Assembly (NCBI RefSeq): GCF_003096275.1
Contig: NZ_QENQ01000001.1
Coordinates: forward strand, 4,052,009 to 4,116,008
Direction: 5' to 3'
DNA from: Sphingomonas pokkalii
GTDB taxonomy: Bacteria > Pseudomonadota > Alphaproteobacteria > Sphingomonadales > Sphingomonadaceae
DNA: 64,000 nt
In this document: positions 25,942 to 35,331 of the stretch, piece by piece
Numbering within the stretch: position 1 is the first letter of the stretch
Layout of the letters: the number at the start of each line of letters is the position of its first letter
Notes under the pieces: generated by a model
What the model saw: only the letters and a program-made list of their open reading frames with translations
The model's database searches: none
Told to the model about the DNA's origin: nothing
Made by a program: the position numbers and the translations under genes

Positions 25942-26275
25942 GCAGGCCCCCCGGCATAGTTGCCATGCATCGTAGCGGTGCGCGCGGAGAAGCGCCAGCG
26001 CGCCGATTGCCATAGAAACGGGGCAGTGAAACGCGGCGTGGGGAACGCCGTCTTCGAACGCGATTGACGCTACGGCACCGGCAATTCCTCAGCCGCTATC
26101 GGCCCGCTTCTTGCCGCTACTTGCCAATTTGGTTCGATTCGGGTGTGCTTTGGATGTCACATACCTATTCCAGTAGCAATTTGAAACTTTAGTTTTTCTT
26201 GACGCAGATAGAGCGAGGGCGTGTATTCGAAGGTACGGTATGGAGCGCGACAGAGGCTCCAGCCAAGGTGGAGAG
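25942..26275. other. Intergenic region between divergent MFS and TonB-receptor genes
   Basis: A 334-bp region without a credible gene; a 90-codon open frame on the minus strand overlaps the receptor's signal sequence and lacks a Shine-Dalgarno. The part from about 26100 to 26230 is clearly AT-richer than the surroundings and holds the receptor's candidate promoter. I see no terminator hairpin or convincing operator palindrome. Confidence 0.6.
26199..26227 (+). promoter_or_regulatory. Candidate sigma-70 promoter of the TonB-dependent receptor
   Basis: TTGACG (26199-26204) and TGTATT (26222-26227) are separated by 17 bp and lie 49 bp before the receptor start, in an AT-rich stretch. The -35 matches five of six consensus bases and the -10 four of six. 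Confidence 0.5.
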
Positions 26276-28996
26276 ATGTCTATGCGGCTACGCCTCATGT
26301 CGGCCTGTGCGGTGCCGGCGCTTGTGATCGCGCTTGCAGTTCCGGCCCAGGCCCAGGACACAACGGATCAACCTTCCCAGAATGAATCCAACGAAATCAT
26401 CGTGACGGCGCAGGGGCGCGCGCAGGCGCTCGCCGATGTGCCGATCGCGGTTTCCGCGGTCAGTTCCGAAGTGCTGCAACGAACGGGCGCCAACGATATC
26501 CGGGCACTGAACCAGGTCGCACCGTCGTTGCTCGTTTCGTCCACGGGCAGCGAGGCGAACGGTTCGGCCCGTATCCGCGGTATTGGTACGGTCGGCGACA
26601 ATCCCGGTCTCGAAAGCTCGGTCGCGGTCTTCATCGACGGGGTCTATCGCTCGCGTTCGGGGATCGGCCTCAACGAACTTGGCGAGATCGAGCGGATCGA
26701 AGTGCTGCGCGGGCCGCAGGGTACGCTGTTCGGCCGCAATGCCTCGGCGGGCTTGATCAACATCGTCTCCAAGATGCCGGAGCCGACCTTCTCCGCGGGT
26801 GGGGAGGTGACCTACGGCAATTACGAGACCGTTCGTGCCCAAGGCTTCGTCAACGTGCCGCTCAGCACCGTCGTGTCCGGGCGGCTCGACGGCGTCTATA
26901 TGAAGCGCGACGGCTTTTATCGCGATGTCACCAACAACCGCGATATCAACAACCGCGATCGCTATTTCCTGCGCGGCCAGCTATTGTTCGAACCGTCGAG
27001 CGATCTGCGCGTCCGGGTGATCGGAGACTATACACGGCGCAACGAACAATGCTGCGCCGCCGCCTATATGGATTATTCGAACAATCCGTTTATCGGTGAT
27101 CTGAACAGCCCCACGGCAAACAACATCGTCCGGGTGCTGCGCGATCTCGGCCAGCCGATGGCTGCGTTCAGCAATCCCTATAGCCGCAACGTCTATATCT
27201 CCAAGGGGCGGAGCTATGGCGGCATTACCGAGGATTGGGGTGGCTCGGTGCAGGTGGATTGGACGCTGGGCGGCGCGACGCTCACGTCGATCACCGGCTA
27301 TCGTAACTATTTCGCCAGCCAGGGTGCGGACACCGATTACAGCGCGATCGACATCCTGTATCGCTCGCCCAACGCGGATTCCTCACGCGCGTTCGAAACC
27401 TGGAGCCAGGAACTGCGGCTGAACGGCAATGCGTTCGACAACAAGCTGGACTGGCTGATCGGCGGCTATTTCGCCGATGAGGACCTCACGGTCGTCGATA
27501 ATCTGCGGTTCGGGACGCAATATGGCCGCTTCGCAACGTGCCGGATCGTGTCCGGCAGCGCCTTGGCGGCGCTCTATTCCCCAGGCTCCGCCGGTTGCCT
27601 TGCCGCGCGTCCAGCGGCCTTCGGGGCTGCCTCGCCGCTGATCTATGCGGCGTTCGACCGGCTGGACGGGATCAACGATCGCGGCACTACACGCGACTTC
27701 TACAAGCAGAACAGCCGCAATTGGGCGCTGTTCACCCACAATATCATCCATGTCGCCAAGGCGTTGGATCTCACCGTGGGTCTGCGCTACACCAATGAAC
27801 GCAAGCGCTTCAATGCGAGTTTCGGGAACGACAACACGGCGTGCGTTGCCAACCAGGCGTCGCTGCTGCCCCTGCGCTCGATCGCGTCGCTGACCGGCGT
27901 TGTCGACGCGATCGTCGGTCTCTCCTGCCAGGGCAATTCCACTTCAGAGATCAACGGCGTGTCGATCCGCGATACCCGAAAGGAGGATCAGTTCACCGGC
28001 ACCGCGATCCTTTCCTACAAGCCCACCGATGATCTGCTGGTCTATGGCAGCTATTCGCGGGGCTATAAGGCGGGTGGCTTCAACCTTGATCGCTCGGCCT
28101 TGAAGCTGCCGATCGCAACCTTCGCGTCGCTCGGTGGGGCGCAGGCGGTGGTCGGCAACCTGCAGTTCGCGCCGGAGACGAACGACGCCTTCGAAATCGG
28201 CCTGAAATACTCGACGCGGAAGTTCAGCCTGAATGCATCGCTGTTCCGCCAGCAGTTCAAGAATTTCCAGCTCAATACCTTCAACGGCACGGTATTCCTC
28301 GTGCAGAACATCAACGGTTGTACCACCGGCCTGGGGGGTGGCGATCGTGACCAGAACAAATTCAACACGGCGCCCAATTTCAACGCTGCAGCCGGAACGA
28401 CCGGCAGCTGCGCGGCCAGCAATGTCAGCTATGGCGTGGTTTCGCAGGGTGTCGAACTGGAAGCGACGCTGGTGCCGGTGCGCGACGTGCATATCGGCAT
28501 GGGGCTCACCTATGCCGATACCCATTATCGCGACCAGCTGGTCGGCACGGACAAGGGGGCGCCGCTGGACCAGGCGTTGCGCTTGTTGCCGGGACGCAAT
28601 CTCTCCAACGCGCCCGAAGTGGTTGCCACCGCGTCGGTCGCCTGGACGCCGCCACTGGGCAGTTCGGGCCTGAGCGGGCTTGTCTATTTCGACACGCGCC
28701 TGACCGGGGACTTCAACACCGGATCGGACCTGTTCCCGCAGAAGATCCAGGACGGCTTCAATGTCGTGAACGGCCGTATCGGCATTCGGGGCAAGGAGGA
28801 GCGCTGGGCGATCGAGCTTTGGGCGCAGAACCTGTTCAACCAGAACTTCGCGCAGGTGGTGTTCAACTCGCCCTTCCAGGAAGGCGCGACCGGCGCTCCC
28901 TTTGTCGATCCGCAATATCCGGGCGGGCGACAGCTCTTCTCGGCCTATCTCGCCGAGCCGCGCACCTATGGCCTGACAGTTCGAACCCGTTTCTGA
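26276..28996 (+). CDS. TonB-dependent outer-membrane receptor
   Basis: A 906-residue receptor. The ATG at 26276 follows GGTGGAGAG; an in-frame ATG 12 codons upstream is less likely. A signal peptide (about 1-27, ending in AQAQ) is followed by a TonB-box-like EIIVTAQGRAQ, the plug domain (about 45-160, with SVAVFIDGVYRSRSG and IEVLRGPQGTLFGRNASAG) and a large 22-strand barrel ending in the usual C-terminal aromatic residue (TYGLTVRTRF). Sequence style is that of sphingomonad receptors for carbohydrates, terpenoids or aromatic compounds rather than siderophores; the ligand is unknown. The adjacent TetR-controlled acyl-CoA operon suggests a lipid-like or terpenoid substrate (inference). A terminator follows. 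Confidence 0.93.
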   Translation: MSMRLRLMSACAVPALVIALAVPAQAQDTTDQPSQNESNEIIVTAQGRAQALADVPIAVSAVSSEVLQRTGANDIRALNQVAPSLLVSSTGSEANGSARIRGIGTVGDNPGLESSVAVFIDGVYRSRSGIGLNELGEIERIEVLRGPQGTLFGRNASAGLINIVSKMPEPTFSAGGEVTYGNYETVRAQGFVNVPLSTVVSGRLDGVYMKRDGFYRDVTNNRDINNRDRYFLRGQLLFEPSSDLRVRVIGDYTRRNEQCCAAAYMDYSNNPFIGDLNSPTANNIVRVLRDLGQPMAAFSNPYSRNVYISKGRSYGGITEDWGGSVQVDWTLGGATLTSITGYRNYFASQGADTDYSAIDILYRSPNADSSRAFETWSQELRLNGNAFDNKLDWLIGGYFADEDLTVVDNLRFGTQYGRFATCRIVSGSALAALYSPGSAGCLAARPAAFGAASPLIYAAFDRLDGINDRGTTRDFYKQNSRNWALFTHNIIHVAKALDLTVGLRYTNERKRFNASFGNDNTACVANQASLLPLRSIASLTGVVDAIVGLSCQGNSTSEINGVSIRDTRKEDQFTGTAILSYKPTDDLLVYGSYSRGYKAGGFNLDRSALKLPIATFASLGGAQAVVGNLQFAPETNDAFEIGLKYSTRKFSLNASLFRQQFKNFQLNTFNGTVFLVQNINGCTTGLGGGDRDQNKFNTAPNFNAAAGTTGSCAASNVSYGVVSQGVELEATLVPVRDVHIGMGLTYADTHYRDQLVGTDKGAPLDQALRLLPGRNLSNAPEVVATASVAWTPPLGSSGLSGLVYFDTRLTGDFNTGSDLFPQKIQDGFNVVNGRIGIRGKEERWAIELWAQNLFNQNFAQVVFNSPFQEGATGAPFVDPQYPGGRQLFSAYLAEPRTYGLTVRTRF

Positions 28997-29021
28997 AGCC
29001 TTTCCTGGGGAGGAAAGCATG

Positions 29022-29054
29022 GGGCCGGCGCGATATGCGCCGGTCCCTTTTTTT
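29022..29054 (+). terminator. Rho-independent terminator after the TonB-dependent receptor
   Basis: A long GC stem, GGGCCGGCGC (29022-29031) with GCGCCGGTCC (29037-29046), one G-T pair, 5-nt loop GATAT, followed by seven T at 29048-29054. It stands 25 bp after the stop. Confidence 0.92.
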
Positions 29055-29111: not shown

Positions 29112-30347
29112 TCAGCGGTGCAGCACCCGATCGTCGAACAGGCCGAAGGCGAGGGTGGAGGCATAATAGGCGACGGCGCGTTCGCGCGGCATCGTTCCTG
29201 CCCATTTCCGCATGTCGAAGGCAGCGTTTTGCAGCGCCATCAATGCCTGACTTGCGACCAGCGGGTCGATCGGACGGATCGATCCTTCGGCAATGCCATC
29301 GGACAACATGCCGGCAAAACGTCGTGCGATGCGGTTCGATCGATCGAGCATGATCGCGCGTACATTGACCGGAAGACCGGAGAGTGCCGTCGTGCGCAGC
29401 AACGGGCCGCGTTCGGAGAACTGGTAATCGAGCAAGGTGGCGATCGTGCTCTCCAGTCGGTCCCAATAGCTGCCCTGGGCGCGCTCTGCGAGCCGCTGGG
29501 CTTCGACGAGGATATCGAAGCTGCGTTTGTAGCATGCGGTGACGAGATCGTCTTTCGCATCAAGATGGTGGTAGAAGCTGCCTTTTGTCACGTTGAGTTC
29601 GGAGGCGATCCGCTGCACCGACGCCCCGCGATAGCCCAGTTCGTTGATCAGTCGTGTGGCCGCGAGCAGAAACGCTTCGCGGCCGGGCTCGGGTTCTTCA
29701 TGGACCAGCTCGAACAGGCGCGGTTGCCAGCGCTGGCCGGGGGCAGCAATGCCATGGCGAAACACGTCCATCAGTCGCGCCTCGACACGGGGATATTCGT
29801 CGAGCTCGTAGCGGGACATCCACGCGTTCAGCCAGAAGCTGTTTTCGAGCAGGACATGCGCGCGGGCGCCGCGCAGGTCCGTCTGCGCGCGGTTGCCGTC
29901 ATTGCCCCACAGGCTGCGGGTCTTGCGGAAAACGTTGCGCCATCCGGTAAGTAGCTTGCCCTTGATCGGCTCTTCCATTGCCCGCAGGTCGGAGAGGATG
30001 GCGACGGCCTGCTCCTCGCCGCGGCTGATTTTCTCCAGCCGCTCCATGTTGATCGCGAGAAACCTGGCGACGCGCGCTTCCGGCGTGGACTCCGCCAGGG
30101 CCCGATCGAGGATTTCGTCCAGCCAGGCGAGTGTCTGCTCGAAGGCGGCGGCGGCCAGGTCTTCCTTGCGCTTGAAATAATAGGTGACCGACGTGGTGTT
30201 GAGCCCCACCCGGCGGGCGACATCGGCGAAGGTCATCCCTTTCGCGCTTTGTTCGTTGATCGCGGCTGCGGCTGCGGCCAGGATGGCGTCGCGCTTGGCC
30301 TGGAAACGCTTGGTGCTGCCGGGTTCGATCTTGGTGGGGGAGTCCAT
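29112..30347 (-). CDS. Tandem (two-headed) TetR/AcrR-family regulator
   Basis: A 411-residue protein with two complete TetR units in one chain, about twice the normal length. The first helix-turn-helix is at about residues 25-68 (MTFADVARRVGLNTTSVTYYFKRK), followed by a ligand domain; the second is at about 225-270 (GASVQRIASELNVTKGSFYHHLDAK) with its own ligand domain to the end. Both recognition helices look intact, so one chain could bind two half-sites or two different operators. It is divergent from the acyl-CoA dehydrogenase operon; the 141-bp gap contains palindromes that fit operators. Likely a repressor relieved by an acyl-CoA or acid ligand (inference). The ATG at 30347 has no strong Shine-Dalgarno. 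Confidence 0.9.
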   Translation of the reverse strand: MDSPTKIEPGSTKRFQAKRDAILAAAAAAINEQSAKGMTFADVARRVGLNTTSVTYYFKRKEDLAAAAFEQTLAWLDEILDRALAESTPEARVARFLAINMERLEKISRGEEQAVAILSDLRAMEEPIKGKLLTGWRNVFRKTRSLWGNDGNRAQTDLRGARAHVLLENSFWLNAWMSRYELDEYPRVEARLMDVFRHGIAAPGQRWQPRLFELVHEEPEPGREAFLLAATRLINELGYRGASVQRIASELNVTKGSFYHHLDAKDDLVTACYKRSFDILVEAQRLAERAQGSYWDRLESTIATLLDYQFSERGPLLRTTALSGLPVNVRAIMLDRSNRIARRFAGMLSDGIAEGSIRPIDPLVASQALMALQNAAFDMRKWAGTMPRERAVAYYASTLAFGLFDDRVLHR

Positions 30348-30405
30348 GGTGGTTAGCTTAGCTGTTTCCGTCCGCCGCTAAAATGGTTTTTTGAAGGTTG
30401 CGTAG

Positions 30406-30417
30406 GGCAATTTTGCC
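30406..30417. promoter_or_regulatory. Candidate second operator palindrome GGCAA-TT-TTGCC
   Basis: A 12-bp inverted repeat with 5-bp arms, in the gap between the TetR gene and the acyl-CoA dehydrogenase operon. Its sequence differs from the larger palindrome at 30432, which would suit a regulator with two different DNA-binding heads. Short, so it could occur by chance. Confidence 0.3.
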
Positions 30418-30431
30418 GCTGGCCAGCCCTT

Positions 30432-30447
30432 TACCGAATATCCGGTA
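30432..30447. promoter_or_regulatory. Candidate TetR operator overlapping the operon promoter
   Basis: TACCGAATATCCGGTA is a 16-bp palindrome with one mismatched pair. It lies just upstream of TATAAG (30451-30456), a good -10 candidate for the acyl-CoA dehydrogenase operon, so a bound repressor would block the promoter. The position, 85 bp before the divergent TetR start and 42 bp before the dehydrogenase start, fits a shared operator. Confidence 0.5.
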
Positions 30448-30488
30448 CGCTATAAGCCTGGGGCAAAGAACCACGGGAGAGCGATGCG

Positions 30489-31772
30489 ATGGACTTCACG
30501 CTGAGCGCGCGGCAGGCCGAATACCGCGATCGGGTGCGGGCCTTTGTAGATGCGGAGATCCGGCCGCGCGACCCGGCCTATCGGGCGGCGGCTGCGGCCG
30601 GAGATCGCTGGGCGGTCAATCCCGTACTGGAGGAGGTGAAGGCTGCCGCCAAGGCGCAGGGACTGTGGAACCTGTTCATGCCGCCGCATTCGGGGCAGTC
30701 GCATGTCGACGAAAGTTTCCGCTTCGAAGGGGAGCAGCTGACCAACCTCGAATATGCCCTGTGCGCGGAAGAGATGGGCCGAATGGACTGGGCATCGGAG
30801 GTGTTCAACTGTTCGGCGCCGGATACCGGCAACATGGAAGTGCTGCACCGTTATGGTACGCGCGCGCAGAAAGATGCCTGGCTGGCGCCGCTGATGCGCG
30901 GCGAGATCCGCTCGGCGTTCCTGATGACGGAGCCGGCGGTCGCATCCTCCGATGCGACCAATATCGAAACGCGGATCGAACGGGATGGCGACCATTACGT
31001 CATCAACGGACGGAAATGGTGGTCGTCGGGCACGGGTGATCCGCGGTGCAAGATCGCGATCGTCATGGGCAAGACCGATTTCGGGGCTGCGAAACATGCC
31101 CAGCAGAGCATGATCCTGGTGCCGCTCGATACGCCGGGCGTCACGATCGAGCGGATGCTTTCGGTGTTCGGGTATGATCATGCACCGCATGGCCATGGCG
31201 AAGTCTCGCTCCGCGATGTGCGGGTGCCGGTGGAGAATCTCCTGCTCGGCGAAGGCCGGGGATTCGAGATCGCGCAGGGGCGTCTTGGCCCCGGGCGCAT
31301 CCATCATTGCATGCGTACGATCGGCGTTGCCGAGGCGGCGATTGCGGCGATGGCGAAGCGGCTTGTGGGGCGTGTGGCGTTCGGCAAGCGCATCGCCGAT
31401 CACTCGATTTGGGAGCAGCGAGTCGCCCGCGCGCGGATCGATATCGAAATGACCCGGCTGCTGTGCCTGAAGGCCGCCGACATGATGGACCGGGCCGGCA
31501 ACAAGGCTGCACAGCAGGAAATCGCGATGATCAAGGTGCAGGCGCCGGCCATGGCCCTGCAGATTCTGGACGATGCGATCCAGGCGCATGGCGGCGCCGG
31601 GGTGAGCGACGATTTCGACCTGGCCCATCATTGGGGCAGCATCCGCACGCTTCGGCTGGCAGACGGGCCGGATGAGGTCCATGCCCGTGCGATCGCTCGG
31701 GCGGAATTCGGCAGATATGCCGCGCTGCGGGCGGAAAGCCCGTCATCGGGTGACCTCGGGGTCAGCCGGTGA
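30489..31772 (+). CDS. Acyl-CoA dehydrogenase (ACAD10/11- or LvaC-like context)
   Basis: A 427-residue FAD enzyme with the three-part acyl-CoA dehydrogenase fold: N-terminal helices (about 1-150), middle beta domain ([17 protein letters not shown] at about 138-154, [12 protein letters not shown]) and C-terminal helical bundle (about 260-410, [13 protein letters not shown] and [12 protein letters not shown]). It forms an operon with a phosphotransferase-like kinase (40 bp downstream) and a short-chain dehydrogenase that overlaps the kinase. That trio is the set used for 4-hydroxyacyl-CoA breakdown by the bacterial Lva system and, fused, in mammalian ACAD10/11. By that analogy it would act on a phosphorylated 4-hydroxyacyl-CoA; an ordinary beta-oxidation role remains possible. 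Confidence 0.88.
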
Positions 31773-31812
31773 ACGGGGCGGGCAGGGGCTTTGTCCAGGC
31801 GGCAGGCGCGCG

Positions 31813-32829
31813 GTGAGCGATCTCGACGAAACCCGCCTGCTGGCCTGGTGCGTGGGCCATGTGCCGGGCTTTGCCGGGCCGATCCACGTCGTCAAATTTC
31901 CCGGCGGGCAGAGCAATCCCACCTACCGCGTCGATGCGGCAACGGGCGCCTATGTGCTTCGGCGCAAGCCTTTCGGGCCGATCCTGGCCTCGGCGCACGC
32001 GGTCGACCGCGAATATCGACTGCTCTCCGCCTTGTATCCATCCGGCTTCCCCGTCGCGCGGCCCTATGCGCTGTGCGAGGACGTCCAGGTGATCGGCGCT
32101 CCCTTCTACCTGATGGAAATGGTGGAGGGGCGGACCCTGTGGGATGGCGCGCTGCCCGGCATGGCCGCGGGCGAGCGGACGGCTTTGTACGAAGCGCTGG
32201 TGGACACATTGGCGCGACTCCATCGCATCGATCCTGCAGCCGTGGGGCTGGGGGACTATGGCAAGACCGGCAATTATTTCGCGCGGCAGGTCGAACGCTG
32301 GACGCGGCAATACCGGGCAAGCCAGACCGACGATCTGCCGGAGATCGAGGCGCTGATCGCCTTTCTACCGCGCACCGTGCCGGAGCAGACCGGAATCAGC
32401 ATCGTCCATGGCGACTATCGCATCGACAATGTTCTCTTCGCACCCGATCGTCCGGAGATATTGGCGGTGCTGGATTGGGAGCTTTCGACACTGGGCGATC
32501 CGCTGGCCGATTTCTCCTACTTCCTGATGAACTGGGTAACGCCACCGGATGCGCGATCGGGCGTGCAGGGGCTGGCGGGGGTCGAAACTGGCATCCCGAC
32601 CATGGAGGCGATGGTGGCGCGATATTGCGCGGCTACCGGCCGCGCCGGCGTGCCCGATCTTGATTGGTACTTTGCCTATAACTTCTTCCGGTTGGCGGGC
32701 ATCGTCCAGGGCATCAAGAAGCGGATGCGGGATGGCAATGCCTCCAGCGCGCAGGCCGCAGCCACGGTGGAACGGCTGCCGGGCCTGGCCGCGGCCGCCT
32801 GGAATTTTGCGCAAAGGGCGGGGGCATGA
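31813..32829 (+). CDS. Phosphotransferase-family (APH) kinase, LvaA/ACAD10-11 kinase-like
   Basis: A 338-residue kinase of the aminoglycoside-phosphotransferase fold. The GTG at 31813 is chosen; the longer frame lies inside the preceding gene. Motifs: nucleotide loop [13 protein letters not shown], Lys in YVLRRKPFG, catalytic HGDYRIDN at 199-206 and metal-binding [13 protein letters not shown] from 221. Members beside acyl-CoA dehydrogenases, such as LvaA and the N-terminal domains of ACAD10/11, phosphorylate the 4-hydroxyl of acyl-CoA esters rather than antibiotics. The operon position between the dehydrogenase and the SDR supports this. Antibiotic resistance is unlikely. Confidence 0.88.
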
Positions 32830-33626
32830 CGCGCCAATCCTTCGATTTCTCCGGCAAGGTAGCCGTGGTGACGGGTGCTGCGTCGGGCATCGGCCGGGCG
32901 ACGGTCCGGGCGTTTGCTGCGGCAGGGGCGATGGTCGTCGCCGCGGATCGGTCCGCGCGGGTGCACGATGCGGTATCCGGCCTGGGACAGGCGCTCGCGA
33001 TCGAAATGGATGCTGGCGATGAAGCGGACGTGGAGCATCTCGTCGCGGCGGCCTGCCATCGCTTTGGCGGTCTCGACATCTTTTATGCCAATGCCGGGAT
33101 TGCGGGCGGTACGGCCGGCGTTCTGGACGCAAGCGCAGCGCTTTGGGCGGAGGTGCTGCGGGTGAATCTCATCGGTCCGGCGTTGGCGATCAAGCATGCG
33201 GCACCGCGCATCGTAGAGCGGGGCGCCGGGGCGATCTTGTGTACCGCAAGTGTGGCCGGGATACGTTCCGGGGCGGGGGGAACGCCATATTCGTCGTCCA
33301 AGGCGGGCGTCATCAGCCTGGTGCAGACGGCGGCGCAGCAGCTTTCCGGCTCCGGCGTACGCGTCAATGCGATCTGTCCCGGCCTGATCGAGACCGGCAT
33401 GACCGAGCGCGCGTTCGATTATGCCCGGGAGCGTGGCAAGGAAGACCAGCTTGGCCGGCTCAACCCGCTGCGGCGTGCCGGCGCACCCGAGGAGATTGCG
33501 TCGGTCGCCCTGTTCCTGGCGTCGGACGCGGCATCCTATATCAACGGTCAGGCCATCGCTGTGGATGGTGGCCTCTCTTCCAGCCACCCGGTGACGCGGC
33601 AGGCGTTCGGCAGAGCGGCATTCTGA
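32826..33626 (+). CDS. Short-chain dehydrogenase/reductase
   Basis: A 266-residue NAD(P)-dependent oxidoreductase. The cofactor motif TGAASGIG is at residues 16-23, NAG at about 89-91, and the catalytic triad is Ser142, Tyr155 and Lys159 (YSSSK). It ends with the usual DGG segment. The acidic residue after strand 2 (AADRS) suggests NAD rather than NADP. The ATG overlaps the kinase stop (ATGA), so the two are translationally coupled. In the Lva pathway an SDR interconverts a 4-oxo- and a 4-hydroxyacyl-CoA; a similar job would fit here (inference). Confidence 0.93.
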
Positions 33627-33702
33627 GGGCAAAGCCCCGGCCTCGTCGCGAACGCGACCGGATCGCTGCAGGCTTGTTTTGGCCGTGCGAACGGCGCTAC
33701 CA

Positions 33703-33716
33703 TGGTAGCGCTAACG
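33703..33716. promoter_or_regulatory. XylR-type (LacI family) operator upstream of the GH39 gene
   Basis: TGGTAGCGCTAACG matches the xyl-box TGGTAGCGCTAACA, known for XylR of Xanthomonas and closely related to the Caulobacter site, at 13 of 14 positions. It sits 41 bp before the xylosidase start. It also overlaps a perfect 18-bp palindrome at 33694-33711. No xylR gene is in the window, so the regulator would be encoded elsewhere. Confidence 0.7.
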
Positions 33717-33756: not shown

Positions 33757-35331
33757 ATGCGCAACGGATATGCGGGGATCGCACTCGCCTTGGCAGCGGC
33801 GGGCGCGGCGATGCCGGCAATCGCGCAGCCCGCGGCCCCGGCACGGATCCTCCGGCTGGACGTGGCCAAGCCGCAGGGCCCGGTGGACCGCTTCTTCGAT
33901 TTGTCGGTCGGCTCGGACTTTCCCGGCACACTGGCTCGCGCGGACAGTCAGGGGCAACTCGCCACGGCGGTTCCCGAACTCGGCTTTCGGATGATCCGTT
34001 TCCACGGGATCTTTCACGATGTGCTGAAGACGGTGCGGCAGCAGCCGGATGGCACGATCGCCTATGACTGGACCGGCATCGACCGGCTGTATGACGATCT
34101 GCTGGCGAAGAAGATCAAGCCGTTCGTCGAACTTGGCTTCACGCCCGAAGCGCTCAAGACCTCCGATAACAGCATCTTTTACTGGAAGGGCAACACGTCG
34201 CACCCGAAGCTGGGGCCGTGGCGCGATCTGGTCGATGCCTTCGCGCGCCACCTGATCCAGCGCTATGGCGTGGCGGAGGTCCGAACCTGGCCGTTCGAGG
34301 TTTGGAACGAGCCGAATCTGGAGGGCTTCTGGGAAGGGGCGGACCAGAAGGCCTATTTCGAACTCTACGATGTCACGGCGCGGACGCTGAAGGCCGTTGA
34401 TCCGGCGCTGCGGGTCGGCGGTCCGTCCACTGCCGGCGCGGCCTGGGTTCCGGCGTTCCTCGCCCATGTGGCGGGGGCCCAGGTGCCGATCGATTTCGTG
34501 ACGACGCATACCTACGGTGTCGATGGCGGCTTCCTCGATGAGAAGGGCGAGAAGGACACCAAGCTTTCCCCGAGCCAGGACGCGATCATCGGCGATGTGC
34601 TGAAGGTGCGCCGCGAAATCGCTGCCTCGCCCTTTCCCAGGCTGCCGCTCTACTTCACCGAATGGAGTACGAGCTATACGCCGCGCGACGCCGTGCACGA
34701 CAGCTATGTCAGCGCGGCCTACATCCTCACCAAACTGAAGGCCGTGCAGGGTGCCGTTCAGGCGATGAGCTACTGGACGTACAGCGATCTGTTCGAGGAA
34801 TCGGGGCCGCCGCCCGCGCCTTTCCATGGTGGCTTCGGGTTGATGAACCGCGAAGGCATCCGGAAGCCGGCCTGGTTCGCCTACAAATATCTCAACGCGC
34901 TGCGGGGCGAGACGCTCGCAACGGGCGACTCGCACAGCATGGCGGCGCGGGACGGTGCGCGCGTGGTGGCGCTGGTCTGGGATTGGCATCAGCCCGCGCA
35001 GGCGGTTAGCAACCGGCCCTTCTATACGCGTATCCTGCCGTCCAAGCCGGAGGCGCCAGCCGCGCTCACCGTCTCGGGCCTGAAGCCGGGGCGCTATCGC
35101 CTGCGGGTACATCGCACCGGCTATCGAAACAACGACGCCTATTCCGCCTATATCGACCTTGGGATGCCGAAGACGTTGACCGCGGCGCAACTGCGCCAGT
35201 TGCAGGGGCTGACGCGCGACCTGCCCGAAATCGACAAGGTCGTGCGTGTGGGCACGCGGGGCAGCTTCGCCTATCGCCTGCCGCTTGCGACCAACGACCT
35301 GGCGCTCGTAACGCTTGAGCCCGCGCGTTGA
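33757..35331 (+). CDS. Glycoside hydrolase family 39 beta-xylosidase, exported
   Basis: A 524-residue exported enzyme. GGAGGGG precedes the ATG, and a signal peptide (GIALALAAAGAAMPAIAQ) leads into a TIM barrel of the GH39 type. The putative acid/base is Glu185 in EVWNEPNLEGFW and the nucleophile Glu302 in LYFTEWSTSY, the normal spacing for a retaining clan-A xylosidase. A C-terminal beta domain follows (about 385-524). Expected reaction: release of xylose from xylo-oligosaccharides, probably in the periplasm. The XylR-type operator upstream and manD downstream point to xylan or glucuronoxylan use. GH39 also contains iduronidases, which is the main alternative. Confidence 0.9.
   Translation: MRNGYAGIALALAAAGAAMPAIAQPAAPARILRLDVAKPQGPVDRFFDLSVGSDFPGTLARADSQGQLATAVPELGFRMIRFHGIFHDVLKTVRQQPDGTIAYDWTGIDRLYDDLLAKKIKPFVELGFTPEALKTSDNSIFYWKGNTSHPKLGPWRDLVDAFARHLIQRYGVAEVRTWPFEVWNEPNLEGFWEGADQKAYFELYDVTARTLKAVDPALRVGGPSTAGAAWVPAFLAHVAGAQVPIDFVTTHTYGVDGGFLDEKGEKDTKLSPSQDAIIGDVLKVRREIAASPFPRLPLYFTEWSTSYTPRDAVHDSYVSAAYILTKLKAVQGAVQAMSYWTYSDLFEESGPPPAPFHGGFGLMNREGIRKPAWFAYKYLNALRGETLATGDSHSMAARDGARVVALVWDWHQPAQAVSNRPFYTRILPSKPEAPAALTVSGLKPGRYRLRVHRTGYRNNDAYSAYIDLGMPKTLTAAQLRQLQGLTRDLPEIDKVVRVGTRGSFAYRLPLATNDLALVTLEPAR

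What the first reader, a model, noticed from the sequence alone, without database searches (positions are those of the whole stretch)
29112..33626. TetR-controlled dehydrogenase / kinase / SDR operon that fits 4-hydroxyacyl-CoA catabolism
Seen: an acyl-CoA dehydrogenase, an APH-fold kinase with intact HGDYRIDN and DWE motifs, and an SDR overlapping it by 4 bp, in one operon. Known: in the Pseudomonas Lva system and in mammalian ACAD10/11, an APH-type kinase phosphorylates the 4-hydroxyl of an acyl-CoA and an acyl-CoA dehydrogenase-fold enzyme then removes the phosphate, while an SDR handles the oxo/hydroxy step. Inference: this is a compact sphingomonad version for gamma-hydroxy or 4-oxo acids, lacking a visible LvaB or CoA ligase.
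Basis: partly seen in the sequence, partly recalled or inferred. Interest (0 to 1): 0.6.

Follow-up and report, generated by a model that had tools for sequence, protein, structure and literature searches.

The report
Operon for breaking down 4-hydroxy acids
A bacterium carries the split, two-gene counterpart of mammalian ACAD10/11, which most likely strips the blocking hydroxyl group from 4-hydroxy fatty acids so they can be burned, and it appears to be switched by an unusual two-in-one repressor with a single DNA site in the genome.

Summary
Observation confirmed: a divergent TetR-type regulator and the operon dehydrogenase - APH-type kinase - SDR (4-bp overlap). The dehydrogenase is ACAD10/11-type, not FadE-type: 54.5% identical to mouse ACAD11 (E 1e-134; best ordinary ACAD 5e-42), one clade with it (100/100), with its HCMR motif, phosphate-pocket residues and catalytic aspartate; 112 of 112 related loci keep these, none of seven ordinary ACADs of this genome keeps the set. 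The kinase is 39% identical to the ACAD11 kinase and falls on its side of the tree. A 20-bp site before the operon occurs once in 4.2 Mb, in 24 of 25 relatives with a close double TetR, and in 0 of 67 other named loci (four with a distant double TetR). (2) The operon looks like a reduced form: many relatives have ACAD-ADH-kinase-SDR-SDR, two plasmids add CoA ligase and beta-oxidation genes. Activity, substrate, SDR step and inducer are inferred. Known enzymology, new regulatory variant.

The parts
29112..30347 (-). Double-TetR regulator (411 aa; two TetR units, HTHs at about 36-62 and 241-266), divergent from the operon
   Evidence: two TetR_N stretches; both recognition helices hold invariant columns in 22 aligned sequences; AlphaFold pLDDT 88.6, pTM 0.88; top PDB match Mce3R 9b7y over 410 columns
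30430..30449 (+). Probable operator TTTACCGAATATCCGGTACG (inverted repeat TACCG-N6-CGGTA) just upstream of the operon; conserved block 30429-30454
   Evidence: footprint in the window and 19 relatives; only match in the genome with up to 1 mismatch; reversed-pattern control 0
30489..31772 (+). ACAD10/11-type acyl-CoA dehydrogenase, predicted to eliminate phosphate from 4-phosphoacyl-CoA; R265, R270, H273, R276, D392 correspond to mouse ACAD11 R626, R631, H634, R637, D753
31813..32829 (+). APH-fold kinase of the ACAD10/11 kind, predicted 4-hydroxyacyl-CoA kinase (D201, N206 = ACAD11 D220, N225; start GTG 31813 by homology; longest ORF from 31672)
32826..33626 (+). Classical SDR ([13 protein letters not shown]; aspartate after the second strand suggests NAD(H), from general SDR knowledge); probable oxo/hydroxy step, substrate unknown
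   Evidence: above cut-off only for the broad PRK07231 subfamily; nearest PDB: dihydroanticapsin 7-dehydrogenase, 1.8e-46; an orthologue lies within 4.2 kb of the ACAD gene in 34 of 67 named loci
26240..28996 (+). TonB-dependent receptor, syntenic beside the cluster in L046 and L047; a possible, unproven uptake partner

Best explanation
The operon encodes the bacterial split form of ACAD10/11. The kinase phosphorylates the 4-hydroxyl of a 4-hydroxyacyl-CoA with ATP. The dehydrogenase, with aspartate in place of the usual glutamate base and an Arg/His/Arg phosphate pocket, eliminates the phosphate to give a 2-enoyl-CoA for ordinary beta-oxidation, with the electrons returned to the substrate. 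The SDR handles an oxo/hydroxy step, either reducing a 4-oxoacyl-CoA to the 4-hydroxyacyl-CoA as LvaD does, or oxidising a hydroxyacyl-CoA. A CoA ligase and other beta-oxidation enzymes act in trans. A single-chain double-TetR repressor (Mce3R-like pseudo-dimer) binds one site in front of the operon and is released by an acyl-CoA of the pathway. Shown here: family membership, catalytic residues, gene linkage, conservation and uniqueness of the site. Inferred: the reactions, the substrate class, the SDR step, DNA binding, repression and the inducer.
For: ACAD against PDB: ACAD11 E 1.2e-134, best ordinary ACAD 4.8e-42; 54.5% identity over 411 columns. R626, H634, R637 (phosphate pocket, absent from conventional ACADs), the HCMR motif (called ACAD10/11-specific and essential) and D753 (base) of ACAD11 are named in PMC12440821 (passages); all are present in the window and in 112 of 112 loci. 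The seven ordinary ACADs of the genome keep only R631, common to ACADs, except one R at the R637 column. Tree: 24 ACAD11-like rows against 7 own ordinary ACADs, 100/100. Kinase against ACAD11: E 5.8e-74, 39.4% identity, one side of a 95/94 branch with it. B. pseudomallei orthologues of both domains replaced the ACAD10 domains in vitro, and ACAD10/11 need no electron acceptor (PMC11342911 passages). ACAD and kinase: 186 genomes with both, 16 with one. On two sphingomonad plasmids the core is followed by FadJ, CoA ligase, ACAD and thiolase genes. Regulator and site.
Against: No activity was measured. The operon has no CoA ligase, no histidine phosphatase (present in 11 of 20 hand-picked distant loci) and lacks the ADH and second SDR of relatives, so its substrate range may differ. 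In 17 of 67 usable named loci no kinase passes the thresholds within 4.2 kb downstream of the ACAD11-like gene, and annotated plasmids show such a gene without an adjacent kinase. The ordinary ACADs and the ACAD11 kinase sit on long branches in the trees. LvaA-D were not compared directly. The conserved site may in part be promoter, and the loci that have it are also the closest relatives.
Confidence: 0.85

Rival explanations
1. Same chemistry, different natural substrate: the pair removes a gamma-hydroxyl from a terpenoid, steroid side-chain or xenobiotic acyl-CoA rather than from 4-hydroxy fatty acids or levulinate-type acids.
For: Clusters of relatives hold further ACADs, a TonB receptor, thioesterase and ADH; Sphingobium herbicidovorans has the pair beside P450 and methylmalonyl-CoA mutase genes; the regulator resembles Mce3R, whose regulon is linked to cholesterol metabolism in the abstract of PMC11667970.
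Against: I saw no steroid- or terpene-specific gene in the four-gene core; ACAD10/11 act on simple 4-hydroxyacyl-CoAs (passages); the widespread core is ACAD, kinase and SDRs.
Confidence: 0.25
2. Ordinary beta-oxidation ACAD next to an unrelated APH kinase.
For: Both superfamilies are common; NCBIfam gives the ACAD and kinase only models below their cut-offs.
Against: ACAD11-specific residues, the E-value gap and both trees; 186 genomes with both genes against 16 with one, of 249.
Confidence: 0.04
3. A decaying remnant: the window operon is a deletion derivative that no longer supports a pathway.
For: Compared with L046/L047 it lacks ADH, SDR1 and flanking ACAD pairs; the best ADH match elsewhere in the genome is 36% identical.
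Against: The four frames are intact, catalytic residues and site are kept, and the same compact order occurs in 5 of 67 other named loci.
Confidence: 0.06
4. The conserved 20-bp block is only the promoter, and the double TetR binds elsewhere.
For: The block includes segments that could be -35 and -10 elements (my reading); the loci that have it are the closest relatives, so relatedness alone could conserve it.
Against: It holds an inverted repeat; 24 of 25 loci with a close double TetR have it, while 67 of 67 other named loci (four with a distant double TetR) and 7 of 7 same-family loci without an adjacent one do not; the consensus sigma-70 scan finds no promoter there, though it covers only that type.
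Confidence: 0.2

Closest known systems
Mammalian ACAD10 / ACAD11 (PMC12440821, PMC11342911; passages read)
   Same: Both domains homologous (ACAD 54.5%, kinase 39.4% to mouse ACAD11), same catalytic aspartates, HCMR motif and phosphate pocket
   Different: Two separate genes instead of one chain; operon with an SDR and its own regulator; no HAD domain
Pseudomonas lva operon (known here from passages of PMC6692424 and the ACAD10/11 papers; the original 2017 paper is not held)
   Same: Kinase + ACAD + SDR gene set; same predicted chemistry
   Different: No LvaB-like gene, ligase or permease in the operon; double TetR instead of the sigma54-dependent LvaR; LvaA is reported as only 29% identical to the ACAD10/11 kinases
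Burkholderia pseudomallei kinase/ACAD pair tested in PMC11342911 (passages)
   Same: Separate bacterial proteins that replaced the ACAD10 domains in vitro
   Different: No sequence comparison was made here; regulation not described in the passages seen
Mce3R double-TetR repressor of Mycobacterium tuberculosis (PMC11667970, abstract and passages; PDB 9b7y)
   Same: Two TetR units in one chain; predicted fold aligns over 410 columns (TM 0.65/0.69, rmsd 6.5); lipid-related regulon
   Different: 14% identity; the site here holds a short inverted repeat and occurs once in the genome, whereas Mce3R binds a non-palindromic site

Membership tests
ACAD10/11-type (LvaC-type) dehydrogenase | Closer to ACAD11 than to ordinary ACADs | tested here: met
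ACAD10/11-type (LvaC-type) dehydrogenase | Asp in place of the catalytic Glu (D753) | tested here: met
   D in window and 112 of 112 loci; E (4), G (2) or A (1) in the seven own ordinary ACADs
ACAD10/11-type (LvaC-type) dehydrogenase | R626, H634, R637 phosphate pocket and HCMR motif | tested here: met
   motif named in passages of PMC12440821
ACAD10/11-type (LvaC-type) dehydrogenase | Phosphate elimination from 4-phosphoacyl-CoA without electron acceptor | not testable with these tools
   needs enzyme assay
4-hydroxyacyl-CoA kinase (ACAD10/11 kinase domain) | Homology and clade with the ACAD11 kinase | tested here: met
   (95/94 branch; the ACAD11 row is long)
4-hydroxyacyl-CoA kinase (ACAD10/11 kinase domain) | Catalytic D220 and N225, CoA contact R176 | tested here: met
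   alignment with numbering; window D201, N206, R158. The published R86 did not map on the chain numbering
lva operon | LvaB partner of the kinase | tested here: not met
   the three genes abut, with no small gene between them; DUF6285 absent from the genome, but that LvaB is DUF6285 is recalled, not tested
lva operon | CoA ligase, permeases and sigma54 regulator in the cluster | tested here: not met
   neighbours; ligase homologues elsewhere in the genome
lva operon | SDR orthologous to LvaD | not tested
double-TetR (Mce3R-like) repressor | Two TetR units with distinct HTHs in one chain | tested here: met
double-TetR (Mce3R-like) repressor | Single-chain fold over both units | tested here: met
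   (predicted model only; Mce3R ranked first)
double-TetR (Mce3R-like) repressor | Non-palindromic operator | tested here: inconclusive
   the conserved block holds TACCG-N6-CGGTA and is asymmetric outside it; binding itself is untested

The most novel reading that the evidence does not exclude
A dedicated one-gene, one-site circuit for 4-hydroxyacyl-CoA: a single-chain TetR pseudo-dimer with two different DNA-reading heads senses a CoA thioester of the ACAD10/11 pathway and controls only this operon, giving sphingomonads a natural sensor for 4-hydroxy fatty acids and gamma-lactones.
Probability: 0.35. Interest if true: 0.6.

Novelty: new variant of a known kind. Interest (0 to 1): 0.42.

Why it matters
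The bacterial counterparts of ACAD10/11 are common in this family (189 of 249 genomes) and in the phylum (85 of 299), yet the annotated plasmid records seen name them only as acyl-CoA dehydrogenase and (aminoglycoside) phosphotransferase. Naming them would correct many annotations and offers a split model of two human enzymes. The predicted site and double-TetR repressor make induction by 4-hydroxy acids directly testable and could yield a sensor. It would also tie a Mce3R-type double repressor, a type described as infrequent (PMC11667970 passage), to a defined pathway in Proteobacteria.

Tried and rejected
Considered and rejected: plain FadE plus unrelated APH. The GH39 gene at 33757 as part of the operon: unlikely, since it was not found in the clusters of relatives and a perfect 18-bp palindrome (33694-33711, read) lies before it, which I take for a separate control site; no terminator was found between them.

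Led nowhere or weak: literature on tandem TetR with general terms gave noise (with 15 of 895 listed, and 49); one search found Mce3R. Literature on sphingomonads and this pathway gave the two mammalian papers and two unrelated ones. The Deinococcus 114-aa hypothetical protein matches no Pfam family, so not DUF6285. In the PDB sequence search no listed chain (60 of 96 shown) matched with two stretches, though Mce3R was found by fold.

Limits of counts: the 80 named loci are the best of 596 or more and lean to close relatives. The lists behind one search were typed by hand. Labels PhzF, TesB, ACADb and ACADc for L046 genes were given by eye and come from no call. The tree used 21 of 62 operon kinases, 14 of 27 DUF6285-linked kinases and 1 of 4 other own APHs tried (three gave frames under 200 aa). 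The tree used every sixth of 112 loci plus named extras. One search set aside 13 of 80 loci whose contig ends early and counted a kinase only at 50% identity and 300 bits or more. The 20 distant loci were picked by hand. In one search, L090 and L125 have almost no DNA upstream of the gene, so absence there says nothing. One search covers 112 of 112 loci L046-L157; eight of its rows contain a stop letter that the match ran past.
Full report
Observation. The kinase most likely starts at GTG 31813, as its orthologue in L046 begins MSDLDE, rather than at the first ATG of the frame (31672), which lies inside the dehydrogenase gene.

The dehydrogenase. Against all PDB sequences the best hits are ACAD11 (8v3u, E 1.2e-134; 8v3v; 2wbi) and a putative ACAD (4hr3, 1.1e-128); the next, an ordinary ACAD, is at 4.8e-42. 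8V3U and 8V3V are the ACAD11 structures of PMC12440821, which uses mouse numbering. Identity is 54.5% over 411 columns. That paper (passages) names R626, H634 and R637 as the 4-phosphate pocket not found in conventional ACADs, an ACAD10/11-specific HCMR motif as essential, D753 as the base, and R631 as common to ACADs. My alignment gives all five residues in the window protein (R265, R270, H273, R276, D392) and in 112 of 112 loci L046-L157. The seven ordinary ACADs taken from the same genome keep R631 and otherwise differ, apart from one R at the R637 column (chain numbers run one lower than published). In a tree the window, ACAD11 and 22 other rows oppose those seven with 100/100 support; the ordinary rows have long branches, and the tool warns of that. 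The genome has no second gene of this type (next best 3e-37).

The kinase. PDB: 3dxp 1.3e-107, ACAD11 5.8e-74, 9o56 1.5e-61, then 1.3e-8. Identity to the ACAD11 kinase domain is 39.4% over 325 columns. A search of the genome with the protein finds only itself; the APH family as a whole has six other matches. In a tree of 40 rows the operon kinases, the window, ACAD11 and two plasmid relatives lie on one side of a 95/94 branch, and 14 kinases that sit beside DUF6285 genes on one side of a 99/97 branch; the ACAD11 and Deinococcus rows are long. DUF6285 was my recalled guess for LvaB. It is absent from this genome, occurs in 25 of 299 genomes of the phylum, and all 27 fetched loci hold a kinase 25-32% identical to the window's. 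So the missing LvaB fits the kinase clade. It is also in print that the P. citronellolis lva cluster has no lvaB and that the lvaE mutant of P. putida grows on levulinate (PMC6692424 passages).

Linkage and spread. Of 249 genomes of the family, 189 have the dehydrogenase (E <= 1e-80), 199 the kinase (E <= 1e-70), 186 both, 3 and 13 one only, 47 neither. Across the phylum 85 of 299 genomes have the dehydrogenase. Of 80 named loci, the best of at least 596, 67 have enough sequence: 50 have a kinase of 50% identity or more within 4.2 kb downstream, 17 do not.

The larger module. In 17 of those 67 loci the order is ACAD - zinc ADH - kinase - SDR1 - SDR2; in 5 it is the compact ACAD - kinase - SDR2 of the window. 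L046 and L047 also have the MFS, TonB receptor and double TetR in the same order, with extra ACAD genes and genes that I labelled PhzF and TesB by eye. The best match to the ADH left in this genome is 36% identical, against 55-99% among the loci. The window operon is therefore probably a reduced form, although gains in relatives were not excluded. On plasmids of Novosphingobium capsulatum and Sphingobium sp. TomMM15 the kinase-SDR-SDR core runs into FadJ, a long-chain CoA ligase, ACAD and thiolase genes, with MaoC or enoyl-CoA hydratase. In 11 of 20 hand-picked distant loci a histidine phosphatase gene lies in the cluster, and 14 of 20 have a kinase of one of two types. Against a strict pair, ACAD11-like genes without an adjacent kinase occur too.

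The SDR. It passes only the cut-off of the broad PRK07231 subfamily, and the nearest PDB chain is dihydroanticapsin 7-dehydrogenase at 1.8e-46. Neither fixes its substrate. LvaD is reported to reduce levulinyl-CoA, which is the model for the step proposed here.

The regulator. The 411-aa protein has two TetR_N domains (likewise in five orthologues), 28% alike over 71 residues. In 22 aligned sequences both recognition helices hold invariant columns. AlphaFold with 18 rows gives pLDDT 88.6 and pTM 0.88 for the single chain; the best PDB match is Mce3R bound to DNA, over 410 columns, TM 0.65/0.69, rmsd 6.5, 14% identity. Mce3R is described as one of an infrequent double-TFR type with two unlike HTHs in one chain (PMC11667970; abstract and passages). 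Matches with bound ligands include AibR with isovaleryl-CoA and FadR with stearoyl-CoA, which makes an acyl-CoA inducer plausible. Of 299 phylum genomes, 10 have such a protein at E <= 1e-35 (13 copies); by coordinates against, 7 of the 13 lie next to the ACAD11-like gene.

The site. Aligning the divergent intergenic region of the window and 19 relatives shows a block CTTTACCGAATATCCGGTACGCTATA (30429-30454) much more conserved than the region's mean. The pattern TTTACCGNANNNNCGGTAYG with up to one mismatch occurs once in the 4.2 Mb genome, here; the reversed control gives none. It is present in 19 of 20 named loci with a close double TetR (not in L055) and in 0 of the other 67 loci scanned, four of which have a distant double TetR. 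It is also in 5 of 5 further unnamed relatives with a close one, in 0 of 7 loci without an adjacent one and 0 of 1 with a distant one. Relatedness confounds this in part, and part of the block may be promoter.

Mechanism and confidence. Kinase then phosphate elimination is the best reading (0.85), by homology to enzymes tested in vitro, including bacterial orthologues from Burkholderia pseudomallei (PMC11342911 passages). The SDR step, natural substrate, uptake by the TonB receptor, repression and inducer are inference. Searches of the open library for this pathway in sphingomonads or for its regulator showed no paper on it among the listed hits, judged by titles and abstract starts; most subscription papers are not held.

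Verdict. Known enzymology in a common but unnamed bacterial form, with an unusual double-TetR circuit: a new variant of a known kind, moderate interest. The enzyme pair alone would be a new member of a known kind.

Noticed in passing
33694-33711: Perfect 18-bp palindrome GCGCTACCATGGTAGCGC just upstream of the GH39-family gene (33757-35331); looks like the operator of a separate regulator.
   Followed up: partly
29021-29047: Terminator-like hairpin (12 pairs, T tail) between the convergent TonB receptor and regulator genes (the scan as a whole finds no more than shuffles do).
   Followed up: no
L128:10001-11239: An ACAD11-like gene without an adjacent annotated kinase lies near linA, linX and linC on the Sphingobium indicum B90A plasmid pSRL1.
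   Followed up: no
L194-L201, L204-L206: A histidine phosphatase gene lies in the ACAD11-like cluster in 11 of 20 distant loci (also Deinococcus L132); perhaps it clears dead-end 4-phospho compounds.
   Followed up: partly
L131:5920-13654: Sphingobium herbicidovorans plasmid pMSHV has FadJ-like, ACAD11-like, kinase, alpha/beta hydrolase, isomerase, ferredoxin and P450 genes in a row, with a methylmalonyl-CoA mutase family gene further on: perhaps another substrate branch of the module.
   Followed up: no
L158-L184: DUF6285 genes lie beside a separate APH-kinase clade, several next to ACADs only about 26-33% like the window's; a second kinase/ACAD pairing.
   Followed up: partly
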